This document shows, one piece after another, positions 1 to 8,464 of a stretch of 8,479 bases of DNA. Position 1 is the first letter of the stretch. Each line of letters begins with the position of its first letter. The notes below the pieces were generated by a model, which made no database searches, was not told the origin of the DNA, and saw only the letters and a program-made list of their open reading frames with translations. Both the position numbers and the translations under genes were made by a program. Source of the stretch: Burkholderiales bacterium (GTDB taxonomy: Bacteria > Pseudomonadota > Gammaproteobacteria > Burkholderiales > SG8-39); NCBI GenBank assembly GCA_029266935.1, contig JAQSVY010000043.1, forward strand, positions 1-8,479, given 5' to 3'.

Positions 1-428
1 GCGCCGGTGCTCGTCGAGGTGCTCGACTGGCCGCTCGTGCTGCCGCTCGTCGAGGACGAAGGCGTGGTCTGCGAGCTGGTGCTGCCCGAGGCGCTGGAAC
101 TCGAGGGCGTCGTGGTCTGCGAGCTGGTGCTGCCGCTTGCCGTGGGCGATGGCGTGGTCTGCGAGCTGGTGCTGCCGCTTGCCGAGGACGATGGCGTGGT
201 CTGGGAGCTGGTGCTGCCGCTTACCGCGCCGCGCTCGCGCAGGCAGCGCTCTTTCTCGGCAGGCATCATGTTGTCGCAGTTGCTGCTCGCCATGCCGCCG
301 GCAGCTGCGCTACCCGACCCGCCGCTCGTCTGCGCGCCGGTGCTGCCCGACGAGGTCTGGGCGAAGGACGCGCTCGACAGCGCAAGGAGCGCCGCGGCGG
401 TTGCACAAGCTAGAACTTTCACATTCAT
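1..428 (-). CDS. Secreted Ser/Thr-rich repeat protein, 3' end outside window
   Basis: No stop codon is reached before the window edge, so 142 residues are visible and the C-terminus is missing. The N-terminus is a classical Sec signal peptide: MNVKVLACATAAALLALSS, then a probable cleavage after the A of ASFA, before QTSSG (about residue 23/24). A short Gly/Ser/Ala linker leads to a cysteine element, C-x10-C-L-x-E (bases 276-278 and 243-245 encode the two Cys). From base 221 down to base 6 the protein is a tandem repeat of the type SGSTSSQTTPSSSA. The start is well supported: AAGAGGAG lies 7 bases upstream of the ATG. The gene is third in a leftward row of small exported proteins, 67 bases after the previous one, and shares the cysteine element with it. 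Function unknown. The Ser/Thr/Gly tail suggests an extended, surface or periplasmic linker, possibly a glycosylation target; that is inference. Existence as a gene is fairly sure because signal peptide, ribosome binding site and motif all agree in one frame. Confidence 0.8.
   Translation of the reverse strand, partial: MNVKVLACATAAALLALSSASFAQTSSGSTGAQTSGGSGSAAAGGMASSNCDNMMPAEKERCLRERGAVSGSTSSQTTPSSSASGSTSSQTTPSPTASGSTSSQTTTPSSSSASGSTSSQTTPSSSTSGSTSGQSSTSTSTG
6..221 (-). repeat. Tandem 42-nt repeats encoding SGSTSSQTTPSSSA-like units
   Basis: Five head-to-tail units are seen inside the Ser/Thr-rich gene, at 180-221, 138-179, 90-137, 48-89 and 6-47. Four are 42 bases (14 codons); the unit at 90-137 has two extra codons (16 residues, TTTPSSSSA ending). 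Units 1-4 keep SGSTSSQTT, while the last decays to SGSTSGQSSTSTST. The high identity at DNA level between units suggests recent duplication or slippage. The array may continue past the left edge. Confidence 0.85.
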
Positions 429-435
429 CTGGATG

Positions 436-443
436 CTCCTCTT
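436..443 (-). promoter_or_regulatory. Ribosome binding site of the Ser/Thr-rich secreted protein
   Basis: AAGAGGAG on the minus strand, 7 bases before the ATG at 428. It is the clearest Shine-Dalgarno sequence in the window and decides the start of a gene that lacks a stop codon inside the window. Confidence 0.75.
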
Positions 444-495
444 GAGGAACGGGTTGGTGGGAATTGCAGCGCGGGACACGCAAGCACCATGCCGG

Positions 496-804
496 TCATC
501 GCGGCGCGCCTGGGCCGACAGGAGCACCGCCGCTTGAGCCGCTCGAAGTCCCGGTTCCGATGCCCGATCCCGTGCCGGTGCTCTCCGGCCCGCTCGCGCG
601 GCCGGCCTCCATGGGCTTGCGCTCCTCGGCGAGGCAACGTTGCCTGGCGTTTCCCTGGAGCCGCGCGCACGGATTCGCCGGGTCGCGCGGCACGCTCTCG
701 GGCAGGCGGGGCAGGTCGGAACCCGAGCGGATGCGGGTGCCGGGGCCTTCCGCCATCAGCGTTCCGGCAAAAAGAAGGAGCGCAAGTGCGGGAAGAAGCC
801 GCAT
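496..804 (-). CDS. Small secreted protein with C-x10-C element
   Basis: 102 residues. The first 18 or so form a signal peptide (MRLLPALALLLFAGTLMA, likely cleaved before EGPG). Residues 19-45 are polar and Pro-rich. C46 and C57 form C-x10-C followed by L-A-E-E, with a Gly in the middle (CARLQGNARQRC). Residues 70-102 are Gly/Ser/Thr/Pro-rich with no predicted fold. The open frame extends 100 codons upstream to 1104, but the signal peptide fixes the start at the ATG at 804. That ATG lies one base after the stop of the upstream lipoprotein gene (TGATATG), so translation is probably coupled; no good Shine-Dalgarno is seen. The two Cys could form an intramolecular disulfide in the periplasm. Similar short Cys elements occur in unnamed small exported proteins of betaproteobacteria, as far as I recall. 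No function can be given. Confidence 0.72.
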   Translation of the reverse strand: MRLLPALALLLFAGTLMAEGPGTRIRSGSDLPRLPESVPRDPANPCARLQGNARQRCLAEERKPMEAGRASGPESTGTGSGIGTGTSSGSSGGAPVGPGAPR

Positions 805-805
805 A

Positions 806-907
806 TCAGCGCGCCGAGCCAGATTCGGCTGCCGAGCCGGCGTACTGGTTGCTCGCGCAGGCGGCTGTGCTAAGCGCGAGCAGCGGGACGATGAGCGGAC
901 GCCACAT
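806..907 (-). CDS. Very small putative lipoprotein (33 aa)
   Basis: The sequence starts MWRPLIVPLLALSTAAC, a short charged start, a hydrophobic core and a lipobox-like TAAC with C17 as the lipidation site. T at -3 is less usual than L/V/I. The mature part would be only 17 residues, polar and Ala/Ser-rich (CASNQYAGSAAESGSAR). The frame is open further upstream (to 1003), but that part looks like shadow sequence and the lipoprotein signal sets the start at 907. The start lies inside the 3' end of the topoisomerase gene (38-base overlap), and the stop is one base before the next ATG. No convincing Shine-Dalgarno. It is not recognisable as an entericidin or other named peptide. It could also be a leader-type ORF that only serves to couple translation to the next gene. 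Confidence is moderate because of the size. Confidence 0.5.
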   Translation of the reverse strand: MWRPLIVPLLALSTAACASNQYAGSAAESGSAR

Positions 908-2003
908 GGCCGCGCTGCGGCAATCTGCGTGCCTGGGTCCTTCGCAATTGGATGGAGCGGCGGAGAAGTGTGCCGAGCGGCGCTTGCGGCCTGGGCTCGG
1001 CACGCAGCACGCGCACGACGGCCGCTTCCTCCGCGGCGCCGTTCATCAGGTCGTGCAGGCGGCCATCCAGGTAGGTATCGATGACGCGGGGATGGATGTA
1101 GCACTTGCGGCAGACCGCTTTGGTATTTCCCAACGCCTTGGCCACGGACGCCACCGCCCGGGTGAGGTGGCGTCGGCCCTCGGCGCCGGAGGCGGGCGGC
1201 GCGAGCCTGCGCAGCTCGCGCGCGCAGAGCACCGTCCCCGCCCAGGTACGGAAATCCTTGCTCGTGAACGCCTCGCCCGCGCTTGCCTTGAGGTAGTCGT
1301 TCACGTCGCCCGACTCGATCGGTCGGGTTCCGCCGGCCTCGTCGACATAGCCGAAGAGCTCCTCGCCGGGCAGCTCGCGCATGCGTCGCACGATCGCCGC
1401 GAGGCGCCCGTCGGTGAGCTCGACTGCGTGCTGCACGCCGCTCTTGCCGCGGAAGCAGAAGCGCAGCGTCGCGCCGTCGATGCGCACCTGCCGGCCGCGC
1501 AGCGTCGTAAGGCCGAAGGACTCGTTCTCGCGCGCGTATTCCTCGTTACCCACCCGGATTAGCGTCGCCTCCAGCAGCCGCACCACGGCGGCGAGCGCCT
1601 TCTCGCGCGGCAGCCCCGGGCGTGCCAGGTCGCGGCCGGTGCGGCGCCGGATGCGCGGCAGGGCCCGCGCAAACGCGACCAGCCGCCCGTATTTCGTCTC
1701 GTCGCGCGTCTCCCGCCAGCGCGGGTGGTAGCGGTACTGCTTGCGCCCGCGCGCGTCGCGGCCGGTCGCCTGCAGGTGCCCGTCGTCGCGCGCGCAGATC
1801 CACACCTCGCGCCACGCCGGCGGGATGGCGAGCGAGCGGATGCGCTTGAGCGTTGCCTCGTCGCGCACCGCCTTGCCGCCCGCGCGCCGGTAGCGGAAGG
1901 CGCCGGCCTCGCCTTCGCGCGAGATGCCCGGCACGGCATCCGCCACATATCGCAGTCCGGCCGCCTGCGCCGACCGCTCCGGGTGCAAATCGGGGGGGCG
2001 CAT
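870..2003 (-). CDS. DNA topoisomerase IB (poxvirus/bacterial type)
   Basis: Relaxes supercoiled DNA by nicking one strand through a 3'-phosphotyrosyl intermediate, without ATP. With the start at 2003 it has 377 residues, in the range of bacterial type IB enzymes. Family hallmarks occur in order: an N-terminal AAGLRYVADAVPGISR, the beta-rich IPPAWREVWICARDDGHLQA and GRKQYRYHPRW (catalytic Lys region), then LIRVGNEEYARENESFGLTT (catalytic Arg), FRGKSG, SKDFRTWAGT (second Arg) and GNTKAVCRKCYIHP, whose Tyr is the nucleophile. ATGs at 2036 and 2075 are in frame too. I prefer 2003 because homology starts just after it and it leaves room for a promoter before the divergent kinase at 2082; no start has a good Shine-Dalgarno. 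The last ~45 residues (Arg/Pro-rich) do not resemble the family and overlap the lipoprotein gene by 38 bases, so the C-terminus may be extended by a lost stop. Function is sure, start and tail less so. Confidence 0.92.
   Translation of the reverse strand: MRPPDLHPERSAQAAGLRYVADAVPGISREGEAGAFRYRRAGGKAVRDEATLKRIRSLAIPPAWREVWICARDDGHLQATGRDARGRKQYRYHPRWRETRDETKYGRLVAFARALPRIRRRTGRDLARPGLPREKALAAVVRLLEATLIRVGNEEYARENESFGLTTLRGRQVRIDGATLRFCFRGKSGVQHAVELTDGRLAAIVRRMRELPGEELFGYVDEAGGTRPIESGDVNDYLKASAGEAFTSKDFRTWAGTVLCARELRRLAPPASGAEGRRHLTRAVASVAKALGNTKAVCRKCYIHPRVIDTYLDGRLHDLMNGAAEEAAVVRVLRAEPRPQAPLGTLLRRSIQLRRTQARRLPQRGHVASAHRPAARA
970..1003. repeat. 9-bp inverted repeat in the 3' tail of the topoisomerase gene
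   Basis: GTGCCGAGC at 970-978 and GCTCGGCAC at 995-1003 are perfect inverted copies with a 16-base spacer that can add three more pairs (979-981 with 989-991). On the minus strand it is not followed by a T run, so it is not a canonical intrinsic terminator. It lies about 60 bases upstream of the small lipoprotein start, in the part of the topoisomerase frame that lacks family similarity. Confidence 0.5.
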
Positions 2004-2081
2004 GTAAGACTTGCCGATGACCCGGCGGGTGCCCATGGCCGGGCTCAGTCGCAAAGCGCGTGCCAGCGTTACCATTCGTCC

Positions 2082-3185
2082 GTGAAGCAACTACGCTTCG
2101 TCGCCGCCGCCCTGCAACGTCTGGTCGACAAGATCGACCCGCAGGCCGGCCGCTACCGCATGCTGTTCGAGTCGAGCCCGCTGCCGATGTGGGTGTTCGA
2201 CGCCGAGACGCTGCGCTTTCTCGCGGTGAACGACGCGGCGGTGCGCCTCTATGGCTACACGAGCTCGGAGTTCCTGCAGATGAGCGCCACCGACGTGCGC
2301 CACCCGGAGGAACGGCACATCTTCCGCGACTTCGTGCACCGCGACGCGGGAACGGTGAACCGCGCGCTCTTCCGCCACCTGAAGAAAAATGGCGAGACGC
2401 TGCACATCGACGGTGTCGGGCACCTCGTCAGCTGGCGCGGGCGAGCGGCGCGGCTGGTCGTCATCAACGACATCACCGAGCGGCTGCGCGCGCAGGAGGC
2501 GCTCGAGCGCCTGAACCAGGAGCTCGAGCTCTCGCATGAGCGGCTGCGCGCGCTGTCGCGGCGCCTGTTCGGGGTGCAGGAGGACGAGCGCCGGCGCCTG
2601 GCGCGCGACCTGCACGACGATATCGGCCAGGCGCTCACCGCGCTCAAGATCCAGCTCGAATCGCGCGCGCGCGTCGAGGAGTGCGTCGAGACGGTGCGCC
2701 ATACCCTTGAGCGGGTGCGCCAGCTCTCGCTCAGCCTGCGTCCCTCGCAGCTCGACGACCTCGGCCTCGCCGCGGCGTTGCGCTCGCACCTCGACCGTCA
2801 GGCGCGCGTCGCCGGCATCGCCGCGCATTTCGACGCCACCGACGCGCCGCCCGACATGGGCCCGGAGACCGAGACGGCCTGCTTCCGAGTGGCGCAGGAA
2901 GCGGTCAACAACGTGCTGCGCCATGCCGACGCGCGCAACCTCTGGGTGCGGCTCTTTACCGCCGGCGGCCGGCTCGCGCTTTCGGTGCGCGACGACGGGC
3001 ACGGCTTCGACCTCGAGGACATCCGCACCCGCAGCGGCGCCGACTCGAGCCTCGGGCTGGTCGGCATGGAGGAGCGCATCGCGCTGGTCGGCGGCTCGCT
3101 CGAGCTGCGCTCCGACCGGGAAAAGGGCACGGTGGTGGTCGCCACCTTCCCGGTGCTGCGCGTGAAGGGCGAGCAGGCGGCCTGA
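2082..3185 (+). CDS. PAS sensor histidine kinase, NarX/DegS class (HisKA_3)
   Basis: Soluble kinase of 367 residues that probably phosphorylates the response regulator encoded next. Residues 1-24 are a short N-terminus. Residues 25 to about 131 are a PAS domain (YRMLFESSPLPMWVFD at the start, VVINDITERL at the end). A short coiled-coil linker covers about 132-160. The HisKA_3 dimerisation helix carries RDLHDDIGQ with the phospho-acceptor H178 and the D-x-x-x-Q motif (D179, Q183) known from NarX-type kinases to support phosphatase activity. The HATPase domain shows an N box (QEAVNNVLRHA, N276/N277), a G1 box (DDGHGFD, D304-G308) and a G2 box (GLVGMEERI). No transmembrane helix, so the signal is cytoplasmic; no ligand-binding Cys or His pattern points to haem or FeS. 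The GTG at 2082 is chosen because the frame upstream is antisense to the topoisomerase gene and has no PAS-like content. No clear Shine-Dalgarno. Divergent from the topoisomerase gene. Confidence 0.9.
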   Translation: MKQLRFVAAALQRLVDKIDPQAGRYRMLFESSPLPMWVFDAETLRFLAVNDAAVRLYGYTSSEFLQMSATDVRHPEERHIFRDFVHRDAGTVNRALFRHLKKNGETLHIDGVGHLVSWRGRAARLVVINDITERLRAQEALERLNQELELSHERLRALSRRLFGVQEDERRRLARDLHDDIGQALTALKIQLESRARVEECVETVRHTLERVRQLSLSLRPSQLDDLGLAAALRSHLDRQARVAGIAAHFDATDAPPDMGPETETACFRVAQEAVNNVLRHADARNLWVRLFTAGGRLALSVRDDGHGFDLEDIRTRSGADSSLGLVGMEERIALVGGSLELRSDREKGTVVVATFPVLRVKGEQAA

Positions 3186-3210: not shown

Positions 3211-3855
3211 ATGATCCGCGTCCTCCTCGCCGACGATCACGCGCTCGTGCGTGCGGGTATCCGCTCGCTCCTCAACGGCATGGACGAGGTCGAGGTGGTA
3301 GCCGAGGCTTCCAGCGGCGAGGAGGCGATCGAGCTTGCCGCCTCGAGCCGCCCGGACGTGGTGCTGATGGACATCGCCATGAAGGGCATCACCGGCCTGG
3401 AAGCGGCGGCGCGCATGCGCATCCGCCACCCCGAGGCGCGCGTAGTGATCCTCTCGATGCACTCGGGCGAGGAGTACGTGCTGCAGGCGCTTCGCGCTGG
3501 CGCCGCCGGTTACCTGCTCAAGGACGCGGCGACCGGCGAGCTGGAGCTCGCGCTGAGGAGCGTGATGCGCGGGGAGAGCTGGCTCTCGCCAGCGGTGTCG
3601 CGCCAGGTGGTGGAAGGCTATGTGCAGCGCCCCGGGGGAGAGCAGGCGCCCGAGTTGCTCACCGCGCGCCAGCGCGAGGTGCTGCGGCTCGTCGCCAGCG
3701 GCAAGAGCACCAAGGAGATCGCCTTCCTGCTCAACCTCTCGGTAAAGACCGTGGAGACGCACCGCGCGCAGATCATGGACCGCCTGGGCATCCGCGACGT
3801 CGCGGGCCTGGTGCGCTATGCATTGCGCACCGGCCTCGTTCCCCCCGACGGCTAG
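3211..3855 (+). CDS. NarL/FixJ (LuxR-type) response regulator
   Basis: DNA-binding transcription regulator of 214 residues, the likely partner of the upstream kinase (25-base gap). The receiver domain (1 to about 120) has the acidic pair D8/D9, phospho-acceptor D54 in VVLMDIAMKG, switch S82 in ILSMHS and K104 in YLLKDA, so all phosphorylation residues are present. A linker (about 121-148) leads to the LuxR helix-turn-helix: LTARQREVLRLVASGKSTKE and LSVKTVETHRAQIMDRLGI, complete to about residue 210. The length is normal for the family. The ATG at 3211 begins directly at the first beta strand (MIRVLLADDH); the preceding sequence lacks a clear Shine-Dalgarno, so translation may depend on coupling to the kinase. 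Targets are unknown; autoregulation or control of the receiver gene downstream through the palindromic gap is possible. Confidence 0.93.
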   Translation: MIRVLLADDHALVRAGIRSLLNGMDEVEVVAEASSGEEAIELAASSRPDVVLMDIAMKGITGLEAAARMRIRHPEARVVILSMHSGEEYVLQALRAGAAGYLLKDAATGELELALRSVMRGESWLSPAVSRQVVEGYVQRPGGEQAPELLTARQREVLRLVASGKSTKEIAFLLNLSVKTVETHRAQIMDRLGIRDVAGLVRYALRTGLVPPDG

Positions 3856-3944: not shown

Positions 3945-4325
3945 GTGAACACGACTCCATCGCGTCGCGTCGCCATCGCCGATGACAGCCCTGCATTCCT
4001 CGCCGCGGCCGCGAGCCACGTCGCCAGCCTGCCCGGATTCGTTCTCGCCGGCACCGCCGGCACGGCTCGCCAGGCGCTGGCGCTCGTCGAGTCGGTGATG
4101 CCCGATGTGCTGCTGCTCGACCTGGGGCTCGCGCCCAAGCGCGGCCTCGAGCTCGTGCGGCGCGTGAAGGCGGGGCCGCGCGCGCCCGCGGTGGTCGCGC
4201 TTGCGCTCTTCCATGCGCCGGAGATGCTCGCCGCGGCCAAGCGCGCCGGCGCCGACGCCCTCGTTTGCAAGGAAACCTTCGTCGCCGGCCTGGGCGAGGC
4301 GCTCGCTAGCCTGTTTCCGGCCTGA
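3945..4325 (+). CDS. Stand-alone receiver-domain protein lacking the switch Thr/Ser
   Basis: A CheY-like single-domain protein of 126 residues with no output domain. It has the acidic pair D13/D14 (VAIADDSP), phospho-acceptor D59 (DVLLLDLGL) and the conserved Lys K109 (ALVCKE). The position that is Thr or Ser in normal receivers is Ala (A87, in VVALALFHAPE), so the usual switch response is likely altered. The start is GTG at 3945; an AT-poor leader with only a weak GAG precedes it. It lies 89 bases after a NarL-type regulator and may be a phosphate sink, a decoy for the kinase or a protein-interaction module in the same pathway. Its 3' end overlaps the convergent TPR gene by 20 bases. Family assignment is firm, role is inferred. 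Confidence 0.85.
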   Translation: MNTTPSRRVAIADDSPAFLAAAASHVASLPGFVLAGTAGTARQALALVESVMPDVLLLDLGLAPKRGLELVRRVKAGPRAPAVVALALFHAPEMLAAAKRAGADALVCKETFVAGLGEALASLFPA

Positions 4326-5071: not shown

Positions 5072-7032
5072 AGTCGAAGGGGACGGCCGGCAAGCTCGAG
5101 AAGCTGGGCCTGCGCTCGCGCTTCGACCTGATCCTGCACCTGCCGCTGCGATACGAGGACGAGACCTCGATTACCCCGCCCGAGCTGGCGCCGGTCGGCA
5201 AGCCCGTCCTGGTCGAGGCGCGCGTCGTGCGCGCCGAGATTGCCTACCGGCCGAAACGCCAGCTCGTGGTGCATGCCGAGGGGGTGGCGCTGCGCTTCTT
5301 CAACTTCTACGGGAGCCAGGTAAGGCAATTCGAGCGCGCCGCCGAGCTGGGTCTGCGGGTGCGCGCCTTCGGCGAAGTGCGCGGCGGCTGGATGGTGCAC
5401 CCGCGCTACCGCATCGTCGTGGAGGGCGAGCCGCTCGGAGAGGCTCTGACGCCGATTTATTCCACCACCGCCGGCCTTTCGCAGGCGGAGCTGCGGACCC
5501 TGATACTGCAGGCGCTCGATGCCGAGGCTCTCGACGATACGATTCCTTCTTTTTTGCGGGAAAAGTATCAACTGAAAAGCTTCGAAGAGAGCGTTCGGCT
5601 GCTGCACCGTCCCGTTCCCGGCGTCGACAATGCCGCGGCCTGGCGGCGCATGAAGTTCGACGAGCTCCTGGCGCACCAGCTGTCGATGAAATTCGCCTAC
5701 CGCGCGCGTCGCTCGCGCCGGGCGCCCCCGCTTCCCGGCAACGGCGCGCTCGTGAACGCGTTCCTGAAGCGCCTGCCCTTCCGGCTGACGCGCGCCCAAG
5801 CGCGCGTGCTGAACGAGATCACGAGCGATCTGCGCGAGCCCCATCCCATGCAGCGCCTGCTGCAGGGTGATGTCGGCAGCGGCAAGACCATTATCGCCGC
5901 CATCGCCTGCCTGGTCGCCGCCGACGCCGGCTGGCAGGCGGCGGTGATGGCACCGACCGAGATCCTCGCCGAGCAGCACTGGCGGAAGTTCGGCGAATGG
6001 TTCGCGCCGCTGGGGGTCGAGCTCGCCTGGCTGCACGGCGGCTCGCCGAAGAAGCAGAAAAAAGCGCTCCTGGACGCGCAGATCATCATCGGTACGCACG
6101 CGCTCATCCAGGAAGGCGTCGGGTTCGCGCGCCTGGGGCTCGCCATCGTTGACGAGCAGCACCGCTTCGGCGTGCGCCAGCGCCTCACCCTGAGGCAGAA
6201 GGCCGACGCCGCGCAGCCGCACCAGCTCATGATGAGCGCCACGCCGATTCCGCGCACGCTCTACATGACGGCCTACGCCGACCTCGACGTCTCCACCATC
6301 GACGAGCTGCCGCCGGGCCGCCAGCCGGTCGCGACGCGGCTCATCGCCGCCGCGCGGCGCGCGGAGGTGCTCGGGCGCATCCGCGACGCGGTGGGAGAAG
6401 GCCAGCAGGCCTATTGGGTCTGCCCGGTGATCGAGGAGTCGAAGGAAGGGCTGCAGACCGCGCTAGAGACCTACGAGACGCTCGTCGGCGAGCTGAAAGG
6501 CCTGCGCGTCGCGCTGTTGCATGGCCGCCTGCCGGCCGAGCAGAAGGCTGCCGTGATGGACGACTTTTCCCACAACAGGATCCACCTGCTGGTCTGCACG
6601 ACCGTGATCGAGGTGGGGGTGGACGTGCCCAACGCGTCCCTGATGGTGATCGAGAGCGCGGAGCGCTTCGGCCTCGCCCAGCTGCACCAGCTGCGCGGCC
6701 GGGTGGGCCGCGGCGCGCGCGACAGCGTGTGCATCCTGCTTTTCGGCGAGCGTCTCTCCGACAGCGCCCGGGGCCGCCTGCAGGCCATCTTCGAGAACGC
6801 CGACGGCTTCCGCGTCGCGGAGCTCGATCTGAAGCTGCGCGGCCAGGGCGACTTCCTCGGCGAGCGCCAGAGCGGGAACCCGCTGCTGCGCTTCGCCGAC
6901 GTCGACCTCGACCAGGGCCTGGTGCTCGAGGCGCAGGCGGCGGCGCTGCAGCTCATCGAGCAAGACCCCGCCGCGGCGCGACGGCATGTGGCGCGCTGGC
7001 TCGGCTCGCGGCAGGAACTCCTGCGGGCCTGA
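5068..7032 (+). CDS. recG: ATP-dependent DNA helicase RecG
   Basis: Helicase that reverses stalled replication forks and branch-migrates Holliday junctions and R-loops. 654 residues, about 40 fewer than E. coli RecG. The wedge/OB domain starts almost at once ([25 protein letters not shown]) and contains the typical [14 protein letters not shown] and MVHPRYRI parts. The helicase core shows Walker A GDVGSGKT (K273), DEQH box D362-H365 within DEQHRFG, and motif [12 protein letters not shown]. The C-terminal half shows [20 protein letters not shown] and the [12 protein letters not shown] block (motif VI), followed by [18 protein letters not shown]. All motifs are intact. The GTG start overlaps the ridA stop by 4 bases (GTGA); it removes only the N-terminal dozen or so residues of E. 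coli RecG, and no earlier in-frame start is obvious. The two large open frames antisense to it are shadows. Confidence 0.96.
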
Positions 7033-7046
7033 GTTATCCTTTGCGC

Positions 7047-7931
7047 ATGGACCTCGCCGTCATCACCCGGCGCCTGGATGCCTACGAGCGGCTGATCCGG
7101 CTCGACAAGCCGATCGGCGCGCTGCTCCTGCTCTGGCCGACGCTGTGGGCGGTGTGGCTCGCCTCGGGCGGCACGCCGCGCGCGGACATCCTGCTCATCT
7201 TCGTGGTCGGCACGATCCTCATGCGCTCGGCGGGCTGCGCCATCAACGACTACGCCGACCGCGACTTCGACCCGCACGTCGAGCGTACGCGCCTGCGGCC
7301 GCTCGCCGCGCGCGAGATCGCGCCGAAAGAGGCGCTCTTCGTTGCCGCCGCGCTCGCAGCCGCCGCCTTCAGCCTGGTGCTGTTCCTCAACCGCTTCGCC
7401 ATCGCGCTGTCCTTCGTCGCCCTGGCCATCGCCGCCGCGTACCCGTTCACGAAGCGTGTGTTCCCGGTGCCGCAGGCGGCACTCGGCATCGCCTTCGGCT
7501 TCGGCATCCCGATGGCCTACGCCGCGATCCAGGAGCGCCTGCCACTCGAATGCTGGCTGCTGCTCGCCGCGAACGTGTGCTACTCCTTCGCCTACGACAC
7601 GGAGTACGCGATGGTCGATCGCGACGATGACGCAAGACTGGGGATCCGCACCTCGGCGCTGACGCTTGGCCGGTGGGACGTCGCCGCGGTAATGGCCAGC
7701 TACGTGCTCATGCTGGCGATTCTTTCCTTCACCGGTATCTACCTCAACCTCGCCTGGCCTTACCATGCCGGGCTCGGCATCGCCGGGACGATGATGCTCT
7801 ATCACTGGTTCCTGATCCGCGACCGCAGCCGCGACGGCTGCTTCAAGGCCTTCCGGCACAACAATTGGGTAGGCCTCGCCATTCTCGCGGGCATCGTCGC
7901 GAGCACGCCGATGCGCCTGCCGTGGCGCTGA
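7047..7931 (+). CDS. ubiA: 4-hydroxybenzoate polyprenyltransferase UbiA
   Basis: Membrane enzyme that attaches the polyprenyl tail to 4-hydroxybenzoate in ubiquinone synthesis. 294 residues, normal length, with about nine hydrophobic segments (roughly 24-41, 47-64, 97-115, 117-131, 143-161, 166-183, 212-232, 238-256, 274-288). The two Mg/diphosphate motifs are intact: NDYADRDFD (N67, D68, D71, D75) and YDTEYAMVDRDDD (D184, D191, D195). The start RRLDAYERLIRLDKPIGALL is typical of UbiA. The ATG at 7047 lies 14 bases after the recG stop; no obvious Shine-Dalgarno. A longer reading frame opens upstream from 6414 inside recG, but that part is a shadow of recG. No ubiC (chorismate lyase) is next to it in this window. 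4-HB-specific assignment rests on overall similarity and is well supported. Confidence 0.94.
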   Translation: MDLAVITRRLDAYERLIRLDKPIGALLLLWPTLWAVWLASGGTPRADILLIFVVGTILMRSAGCAINDYADRDFDPHVERTRLRPLAAREIAPKEALFVAAALAAAAFSLVLFLNRFAIALSFVALAIAAAYPFTKRVFPVPQAALGIAFGFGIPMAYAAIQERLPLECWLLLAANVCYSFAYDTEYAMVDRDDDARLGIRTSALTLGRWDVAAVMASYVLMLAILSFTGIYLNLAWPYHAGLGIAGTMMLYHWFLIRDRSRDGCFKAFRHNNWVGLAILAGIVASTPMRLPWR

Positions 7932-8464
7932 GCGATCCGGGCGTCGCGCTGACGAGGTTCGACTTCACCGCCGGGCCGCTGCGCGGCACGCACCTCACGC
8001 TCTTTCCCGCCTGCCTCGTGCATCGCGGCGAGTCGCACTTCGAGACCCTGCCGCTCGTGGCGGTCGCCTCGGTGCGCGTCGCCTTCGAGCGCGACGCGCG
8101 CAAGCTGGGCTGGGGTGCCGCGCTCATCGTGCTGGCGCTCGTGCTGCTCGCCATCGCCTCGCCGATCGCTACCTTTGCCAATGGCCTCGCGGCGGACCTC
8201 GCCGCCGCCGGCTCGCAGGGCGTCGCCCGCGGGCTACTCGCTTTTTTCCGTTTTCTCGAGGCGGTGGGCAGCCTCCTGCCGGCGGTCGGCCTTGCCTGCG
8301 CGCTCGGCGGCGCGGCCCTCGCGGCGCTGGGCTGGATCGGCGAGACCAGGCTCGCGATCGCGCTTCCCGGCGCCGAACGTATCTTCACCACGCGCGGGCG
8401 CGACCCGCGCCTGCTCGACTTCTCGGAGGCGCTGAGCGAGCGCATGATGGCGCTGCCGCGGTGA
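7922..8464 (+). CDS. Unrecognised membrane protein with two helices
   Basis: 180 residues from a GTG at 7922; this start overlaps the ubiA stop by 10 bases and no ATG or other better start is seen. Residues 12-58 are a polar, beta-like stretch (TRFDFTAGPLRGTHLTLFPA to about VRVAFERD). Two transmembrane helices follow (about 63-82 and 115-138) with a short Ala/Gly loop containing a second weakly hydrophobic segment. Residues 141-180 are again a beta-like then helical stretch (ETRLAIALPG, then DPRLLDFSEALSERMM). The pattern beta strands, helix hairpin, strands plus amphipathic helix resembles a bacterial PH-like domain split by a membrane hairpin; this is a guess from visual reading only. No signal peptide and no catalytic motif. 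The tight overlap with ubiA and the next gene suggests one transcript. Possible role at the cytoplasmic membrane; I do not recognise a family. Confidence 0.75.
   Translation: MALSDPGVALTRFDFTAGPLRGTHLTLFPACLVHRGESHFETLPLVAVASVRVAFERDARKLGWGAALIVLALVLLAIASPIATFANGLAADLAAAGSQGVARGLLAFFRFLEAVGSLLPAVGLACALGGAALAALGWIGETRLAIALPGAERIFTTRGRDPRLLDFSEALSERMMALPR

What the first reader, a model, noticed from the sequence alone, without database searches (positions are those of the whole stretch)
1..907. Three-gene row of tiny exported proteins behind topoisomerase IB
A 33-residue lipoprotein-like peptide, a 102-residue secreted protein and a Ser/Thr-repeat secreted protein run in one direction, with a one-base gap between the first two and a 67-base gap before the third. 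All three carry export signals. The last two carry the same cysteine element. None matches a family I know. Such compact exported sets are often missed because they are short and overlapped by long antisense frames.
Basis: partly seen in the sequence, partly recalled or inferred. Interest (0 to 1): 0.7.

Follow-up and report, generated by a model that had tools for sequence, protein, structure and literature searches.

The report
Modular exported proteins behind topoisomerase IB
In a group of betaproteobacteria known from metagenome assemblies, the gene for topoisomerase IB is followed by one to three genes for small proteins that are predicted to be exported, share a few building pieces and reach the cut-off of no family in the two catalogues scanned; they likely work in the cell envelope.

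Summary
Three same-strand genes lie at 806-907 (33 aa), 496-804 (102 aa) and <1-428 (>=142 aa, cut by the contig end). Coding is supported: among five genomes (window included) the 102-aa frame outscores the other five frames in 10 of 10 pairs, and 284 homologues were found (E<=0.01). All 7 genus genomes with this topoisomerase IB have one to three such genes behind it, in 5 of 7 before a convergent tRNA-Ala(CGC); eight contigs with a paralogous topoisomerase IB show no C-x10-C profile match. The row is not a fixed triple: content and order vary, and the 33-aa gene is a shortened copy of a lipoprotein family (mostly 70-88 aa), lacking its most conserved block. The proteins share modules: a C-x10-C element, the only part AlphaFold2 models with confidence; a tail GRAAGAGGSHAPGSTG shared by the lipoproteins and C-x10-C fusion proteins; and a C-terminal Arg (292 of 320 proteins held). 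The element recurs across the order in unnamed exported proteins. No Pfam family matches; NCBIfam matches stay below cut-off where the cut-off was seen. Function is inferred: disulfide-stapled, mostly disordered envelope proteins presenting a tail, lipid-anchored or soluble. Interest moderate.

The parts
806..907 (-). lip: 33-aa predicted lipoprotein, shortened member of a family mostly 70-88 aa long; keeps signal, lipobox (STAAC) and C-terminal AAESGSAR, lacks the GRAAGAGGSHAPGSTG block
496..804 (-). sec: 102-aa protein, signal peptide + GPGTRIR + C-x10-C element + GPESTGTGSG + C-terminal APR
634..669 (-). C-x10-C element of sec (C46 to C57), predicted short helix, turn, helix
1..428 (-). ser: Ser/Thr-rich protein, signal peptide + C-x10-C + repeats of about 14 residues; incomplete at the contig end
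243..278 (-). C-x10-C element of ser (C51 to C62)
33..226 (.). tandem repeat, period 42, 4.5 copies, coding the Ser/Thr repeats of ser
870..2036 (-). topoisomerase IB (open frame to 2090; ATG at 2036 chosen by eye); its 3' end overlaps the start of lip
2082..3185 (+). PAS histidine kinase (GTG at 2082 chosen by eye), divergent from topoisomerase IB; conserved neighbour also in G001, where the cassette is absent
3211..3855 (+). LuxR-type response regulator, conserved neighbour

Best explanation
Behind topoisomerase IB sits a variable set of one to three small-protein genes whose products are predicted to be exported and would act in the cell envelope as likely disordered proteins that present a Gly-rich tail, either lipid-anchored (lip type) or soluble and likely stapled by a C-x10-C disulfide (sec and ser types). 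Shown: the genes, their conservation, their position behind topoisomerase IB, the shared C-x10-C element, the lipoprotein tail recurring in C-x10-C fusion proteins, and the near-constant C-terminal Arg. Predicted: Sec export, lipidation and outer-membrane sorting, disorder outside the element, and short helices in the element. Inferred: one transcript with topoisomerase IB (first start within -89 to +25 bases of its stop in 5 of 7 loci), an intramolecular disulfide in the periplasm, and an envelope partner that binds the tail. The window's 33-aa lipoprotein lacks that tail and is probably impaired.
For: Behind this topoisomerase IB in 7 of 7 genus genomes that carry it; no C-x10-C profile match at E<=0.1 on the 8 contigs with the paralogous topoisomerase IB. 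First start relative to the topoisomerase IB stop: -38 (G000), +25 (G010), -8 (G008), -17 (G005), +76 (G003) as printed; -89 (G009) from the lip ATG at L105 5317 and the stop at 5405 printed there (the -104 in its table came from a wrong start that I had typed); +120 (G006) from L120 461 and stop 340. sec against ser element P = 3.4e-9; lip tail against fusion proteins P = 2.7e-16, 73% identity over 37 columns. Spacing is exactly 10 in 119 of 120 listed sec hits and 92 of 95 newly listed ser-type hits; the four exceptions have 9. C-terminal Arg in 292 of 320 proteins held. AlphaFold2: sec element blocks pLDDT 77 and 89, all other 10-residue blocks 64 or less, helices 45-48 and 52-62; ser-type element blocks 77 and 78, helix 69-81. 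Residue after the lipobox Cys: A, V, T, S or I in 75 of 75 counted, out of 91 lipoproteins without C-x10-C.
Against: No experiment. The disulfide, lipidation, partner and operon are untested. The sec tail (GPESTGMGSG) resembles the lip tail only weakly (hhalign probability 22%), so a common tail for all three kinds is not established; it is firm only for lip and the ser-type fusions (35 proteins hold both tail and C-x10-C). In the window itself neither lip nor the visible part of ser holds that tail. The second model shows one helix only, no clear hairpin. In the genus only G009 gave a lip match below E 0.01 besides G010 itself. Four genus genomes lack this topoisomerase IB and any sec-family match, two of them 96-97% complete, so the set is dispensable. 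In G004 and G007 ser-type genes stand 2-6 kb from tRNA-Ala with no orthologous topoisomerase IB found in the genome. The paralogue control is weak in places: only 267 bases lie downstream of it in G000 and 853 in G002, and the loose pattern scan hit one long unrelated-looking frame each in L111 and L113. No promoter or terminator was found in 1-2300.
Confidence: 0.4

Rival explanations
1. They are exported protective disordered proteins of the hydrophilin or LEA-like kind that shield envelope proteins during drying or osmotic stress.
For: Gly 11.8-23.4% in the five mature sequences computed; low model confidence outside the element, which fits disorder.
Against: The hydrophilicity criterion (recalled: mean above 1, taken here as mean Kyte-Doolittle below -1) is not met: -0.86, -0.52, -0.76, -0.54, -0.42. 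Strict motif conservation (both Cys, tail, C-terminal Arg) is not expected of a pure composition effect.
Confidence: 0.15
2. The Ser/Thr/Pro-rich stretches are O-glycosylation platforms, giving mucin-like periplasmic or surface proteins.
For: Ser+Thr 54% in the visible mature part of ser; TPSVTPSQTP repeats in homologues.
Against: PglL_A: 0 of 11 genus genomes, but the control set was silent too, so uninformative. Wzy_C_2: 8 of 11 match at E<=0.001 but 1 of 11 over the cut-off. lip and sec have only 15-24% Ser+Thr.
Confidence: 0.12
3. sec is a distant relative of the entry-exclusion protein TrbK-alt of conjugation loci and would block incoming transfer.
For: NCBIfam TIGR04360 matches 9 of 117 sec-family members at E<=0.01, best 7.5e-5. 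In the three matches seen in detail the stretch runs from the signal peptide through the Cys pair, profile 1-63 of 73.
Against: The three matches seen score 14-18 bits against a cut-off of 33; the window sec has none; ten further members have none; no conjugation gene among the window proteins scanned. Signal-peptide similarity may explain much of the score.
Confidence: 0.06
4. They are secreted peptides used against other cells (bacteriocin-like) with the lipoprotein as immunity protein.
For: Small, predicted exported, clustered, lineage-restricted.
Against: Sec-type signals rather than a double-glycine leader, by eye; no lipoprotein at 4 of 7 loci (G008, G005, G003, G006), and its tail is shared with other proteins; no exporter among the window proteins scanned.
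Confidence: 0.04
5. A lineage-specific, loosely constrained gene family kept by linkage, with no specific role at this locus.
For: Content varies from genome to genome; the window lip is shortened and the G009 lip is frameshifted.
Against: Both Cys in every row of two alignments (117 rows, 74 rows), near-invariant tail, codon-level conservation.
Confidence: 0.18

Closest known systems
Unnamed Lys-rich multi-copy exported proteins of the order (core CDALAGNAKDVC), found here
   Same: Signal peptide (crude rule); C-x10-C with the core C-[DE]-x-[LM]-x-G-x-x-[KR]-x-x-C
   Different: Two or three copies in Ala/Lys-rich stretches; no Gly tail; a link to topoisomerase IB was not examined
TrbK-alt, putative entry exclusion protein (NCBIfam TIGR04360)
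   Same: Weak profile match over signal peptide and Cys pair in 9 of 117 sec-family members
   Different: Below the curated cut-off where seen; no match for the window sec; no conjugation locus seen
Hydrophilins (recalled class)
   Same: Small, Gly-rich, predicted disordered
   Different: Not hydrophilic enough; conserved Cys pair and tail; exported
CHCH proteins with paired CX9C/CX10C motifs (CX10C seen only in the search listing for PMC12114033; family features recalled)
   Same: Helical segments with a Cys spacing of 9-10
   Different: Two Cys pairs and mitochondrial in CHCH; one pair here, bacterial; no sequence relation shown
Gram-negative lipoproteins with a lipobox (recalled rule)
   Same: Lipobox, and no Asp after the Cys in the 75 lip members counted
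   Different: Mature part is a Gly-rich tail of no known family

Membership tests
Hydrophilin (recalled definition) | Gly above 6% | tested here: met
   11.8-23.4% in 5 of 5 mature sequences
Hydrophilin (recalled definition) | hydrophilicity above 1 (mean Kyte-Doolittle below -1) | tested here: not met
   -0.42 to -0.86 in 5 of 5
Bacterial lipoprotein | signal sequence ending in a lipobox Cys | tested here: met
   by eye and pattern in the window copy and family
Bacterial lipoprotein | lipid attached to the Cys | not testable with these tools
   needs labelling
Order-wide C-x10-C exported proteins | signal peptide and core C-x2-[LM]-x-G-x2-[KR]-x2-C | tested here: met
   in the window ser copy position 6 is P instead of G
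Order-wide C-x10-C exported proteins | disulfide between the two Cys | not testable with these tools
   inferred only
TrbK-alt (NCBIfam TIGR04360) | score over the curated cut-off (33 bits) | tested here: not met
   14.0, 15.8 and 18.0 bits in 3 of 10 members, 0 of 10, no match for the window sec; the score of the best member (E 7.5e-5) was not shown
TrbK-alt (NCBIfam TIGR04360) | place in a conjugation locus | tested here: not met
   no such gene among the window proteins scanned; seven loci share a non-conjugative neighbourhood
CHCH twin CX9C | two Cys pairs | tested here: not met
   sec has exactly one pair
Any Pfam family | match (E<=0.01) | tested here: not met
   sec family 0 of 117, ser-type 0 of 15, lip family 0 of 21 including the window lip, window sec and ser 0
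Any NCBIfam family | match at curated score | tested here: inconclusive
   window lip, sec, ser: none at E<=1. sec family: TrbK-alt 9, PtrA domain 3 and XpsN 1 of 117 at E<=0.01; all scores seen in detail are below cut-off, not all were seen
Class II bacteriocin (recalled) | double-glycine leader and dedicated exporter | tested here: not met
   Sec-type signals by eye; no exporter among the window proteins scanned

The most novel reading that the evidence does not exclude
A tiny disulfide-stapled helical module (C-x10-C) is shuffled across the exported proteome of an order of betaproteobacteria (Burkholderiales, going by the record title of one relative), and in this clade it has been combined with a near-invariant GRAAGAGGSHAPGSTG tail and a C-terminal Arg into an undescribed envelope tail-display system, with lipid-anchored and soluble versions expressed from the topoisomerase IB operon.
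Probability: 0.35. Interest if true: 0.65.

Novelty: new variant of a known kind. Interest (0 to 1): 0.47.

Why it matters
These are conserved, lineage-defining proteins, predicted to be exported, that the sources name only hypothetical where they name them. They define at least two reusable modules (C-x10-C element, GSHAPGSTG tail) without a Pfam entry, and one module reaches across a whole order. If the mechanism holds, they are a simple test case of how disordered proteins are stapled, anchored and protected in the envelope, and of why envelope genes ride behind a DNA topoisomerase.

Tried and rejected
Antisense or spurious frames: rejected. Long antisense frames exist, but sec is the best-conserved frame in 10 of 10 pairs.

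Mobile island at the tRNA: not supported. The flanks (SapC gene, by Pfam in G007, and by eye in G010 and G001; tRNA-Ala; kinase to RecG block) are syntenic, and G001 has a receiver-GGDEF-EAL gene (Pfam) in place of topoisomerase IB and cassette. Control by the neighbouring kinase/regulator: not specific, since they are present in G001 without the cassette.

Structured RNA: no Rfam match at the gathering score. PDB sequence matches of the sec profile (9 at E<=1, best E = 1.3e-4) were judged low-complexity and discounted; no fold search was run because only about 20 residues are modelled with confidence. Glycosylation-enzyme tests were inconclusive.

A census of 413 kb from two relatives (181,122 + 231,890 bases) gave 324 crude signal-peptide small frames. 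Among those with third-position GC above 0.7, five hold some C-x10-C and none the core motif. It uses a home-made hydropathy rule, not SignalP.

The idea that the C-terminal Arg blocks tail-specific protease Prc was considered. Passages of PMC7481392 say Prc prefers nonpolar C-termini but that three natural substrates lack one, so it remains a suggestion.

Paper searches: motif strings, 0 papers; listings only. No paper on these proteins was found in those seven searches; subscription journals are mostly not held.

The main odds stand.

Rows chosen or dropped: alignment A4 holds the window sec and 116 of the 120 listed sec hits (left out: P0002, P0004, P0036, P0118; P0118 is the one with spacing 9). 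A7 holds 59 of the 95 newly listed ser-type hits, 12 fusion proteins and 3 locus proteins. Only 120 of the 284 sec hits were listed.

Full report
WHAT IS THERE. The window is one 8479-bp contig of a 56.5% complete genome. On its minus strand, behind topoisomerase IB (PF01028 and PF21338), lie lip (806-907, 33 aa), sec (496-804, 102 aa) and ser (starts at 428, open at the contig end). lip overlaps the topoisomerase IB frame by 38 bases, lip and sec are one base apart, sec and ser 67.

ARE THEY REAL GENES. Searching sec in the genome and 60 relatives matched the genome itself and 5 of 10 same-genus genomes, none of 50 others. With a five-row profile, 7 of 11 genus genomes and, weakly, 3 of 87 other family genomes match at E<=0.01. 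The five sec proteins align with both Cys invariant and GPG.RIR and GP..TG.GSG largely kept. Codon positions 1, 2 and 3 differ in 42%, 41% and 63% of 971 codon pairs; 232 of 406 identical-residue pairs use different codons; the sense frame scores highest in 10 of 10 pairs, with one antisense frame second on average. A profile search of 5.8 billion proteins gave 284 at E<=0.01 (candidates capped at 7991, 120 hits listed). The lipoprotein of G010 gave 104 at E<=1, the ser-type profile 107 at E<=0.001.

THE LOCUS. All 11 genus genomes carry a topoisomerase IB. Seven, the window's own included, carry the orthologue (63-67% identity in the six others); eight further matches at 53-57% are a paralogue. 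Behind the orthologue stand: lip-sec-ser in G000; lip-sec in G010; lip (frame broken)-sec-ser in G009; sec in G008; ser-sec in G005; ser in G003; ser plus a sec-like protein in G006. A convergent tRNA-Ala(CGC) follows in 5 of 7. The window contig ends before that point, and none was found on the rest of the G005 contig. Upstream, the kinase, regulator, receiver, TPR, RidA and RecG genes are conserved as far as each contig reaches; in G006 only the C-terminal part of the kinase matches. In G001 (96% complete) the kinase block and tRNA-Ala are present, but a receiver-GGDEF-EAL gene stands between them, and no topoisomerase IB or sec match lies on that fetched stretch. G004 and G007 have ser-type genes 2-6 kb from tRNA-Ala in the matching orientation; the G004 copy is cut by its contig end. 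None of the 8 paralogue contigs has a C-x10-C profile match at E<=0.1, though in G000 and G002 little sequence lies downstream of the paralogue (267 and 853 bases).

THE 33-aa PEPTIDE. Of 91 relatives without C-x10-C, 70 are 70-88 aa long and 86 hold the GGSHAPG[SG][TS]G core of the tail (alignment). The window copy matches P0206 over the first 20 residues (14 identical; not significant alone, E = 12) and the last 8 (8 identical, E = 0.003) and lacks what lies between. It is a shortened member, by real deletion or by assembly error in a Gly-rich stretch. A search of the genus with the G010 lipoprotein found G010 itself and G009 (3.4e-5); the other matches, E 0.016-0.098, are weak, and none is the window's lip. 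The lip profile does not find the window's genome at E<=0.001 either, with 14 of 78 candidates scored there.

MODULES. sec and ser share the C-x10-C element (P = 3.4e-9). The lip tail recurs at the end of ser-type proteins that also hold C-x10-C (P = 2.7e-16; 35 such proteins; for example P0208, P0211, P0218). Eight of 320 proteins have two elements by a strict pattern. Across 232 elements, position 6 is Gly in 206, position 9 is Lys or Arg in 221, and position 13 is Leu in 184. The spacing is 10 in 119 of 120 listed sec hits and 92 of 95 newly listed ser-type hits, and 9 in the other four. The C-terminal residue is Arg in 292 of 320. The sec tail resembles the lip tail only weakly (22%).

HOW WIDE. 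A 28-position profile of the element (18 rows: 16 from genus loci, P0211, and one from G092 of the same family) gave 31 matches at E<=0.001 in 9 of 11 genus genomes, 15 of them not in the model, and in 1 of 87 other family genomes, G092, whose row was in the model. Of the 14 loci holding these 15 matches, 12 have a frame with a crude signal peptide, 1 does not and 1 is cut by its contig end. Across the order, 12 of 199 other genomes match at E<=0.001 and 49 of 199 at E<=0.1. The frames read out there include Lys-rich proteins with a crude signal peptide and two or three copies of the core. Six proteins (five from the order, one of a second genus family) have no Pfam match at cut-off; one has two matches below it, Med19 and DUF4148. 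Three of them and P0211 have NCBIfam matches only below cut-off or none. The lip tail profile found 1 of 399 order genomes, weakly and with a stop inside; the rows shown scored at most 14 candidates a genome, so this is a lower bound.

STRUCTURE. AlphaFold2 on 117 sec rows is confident only in the element: helices 45-48 and 52-62, block pLDDT 77 and 89. On 74 ser-type rows it predicts a helix at 69-81, block pLDDT 77-78. The rest is low confidence, which fits disorder but does not prove it.

KNOWN FAMILIES. Pfam: 0 of 117 sec, 0 of 15 ser-type and 0 of 21 lip members. NCBIfam: nothing for the window's three proteins. Of 117 sec members 9 match TrbK-alt, 3 a PtrA domain and 1 XpsN at E<=0.01. 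In 20 members scanned singly, three TrbK-alt matches score 14-18 bits against a cut-off of 33 and run from the signal peptide through the Cys pair. A distant kinship with TrbK-alt is therefore open but not shown.

MECHANISM. I commit to envelope proteins that present a tail and are stapled by a disulfide. The lip form would be anchored in the outer membrane (no Asp after the lipobox Cys in 75 of 75 counted; the sorting rule is recalled), and the sec and ser forms would be soluble in the oxidising periplasm. Starts that overlap or nearly touch the topoisomerase IB stop in 5 of 7 loci suggest one transcript, which is inferred; no promoter or terminator was found in 1-2300. The set is dispensable within the genus.

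NOVELTY. No Pfam family, no NCBIfam match at a cut-off that was seen, and no paper on these proteins in the searches. As a kind (small exported envelope proteins) it is known; the modules and their combination are not described in what I could search.

Noticed in passing
L208, L226, L227, L229, L259, L263, L264, L268, L269: A second unnamed exported family in the genus, mostly with a GAIKGGSILPGE-like stretch before a C-x10-C element.
   Followed up: partly
L230, L233-L235, L238-L241, L244, L247, L249-L251, L254, L257, L271: Lys-rich proteins with a crude signal peptide and two or three C-x10-C-like elements, across the order and once in the genus; those scanned have no Pfam or NCBIfam match at cut-off.
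   Followed up: partly
sec-family proteins P0061, P0092, P0099: Weak NCBIfam match to the putative entry exclusion protein TrbK-alt, below cut-off, over signal peptide and Cys pair.
   Followed up: partly
L105 5317-5490: The G009 lipoprotein changes frame after GSTGLGAGTMG; frame broken or sequence error.
   Followed up: no
L156 5603-8512: G001 has a receiver-GGDEF-EAL gene between tRNA-Ala and the kinase where relatives have topoisomerase IB and the cassette.
   Followed up: partly
L011, L012, L013, L016, L017: Topoisomerase IB close to the window's (58-60% identity) on contigs binned as Nitrospira, Binatia and Dehalococcoidia: transfer or mis-binning.
   Followed up: no
window 3945-4325: A lone receiver-domain protein after the response regulator, also found in the relatives whose contigs reach it.
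   Followed up: no
window 7925-8464: A 179-aa frame after UbiA with no Pfam match at E<=0.01, 51% identical to its counterpart in G008.
   Followed up: no
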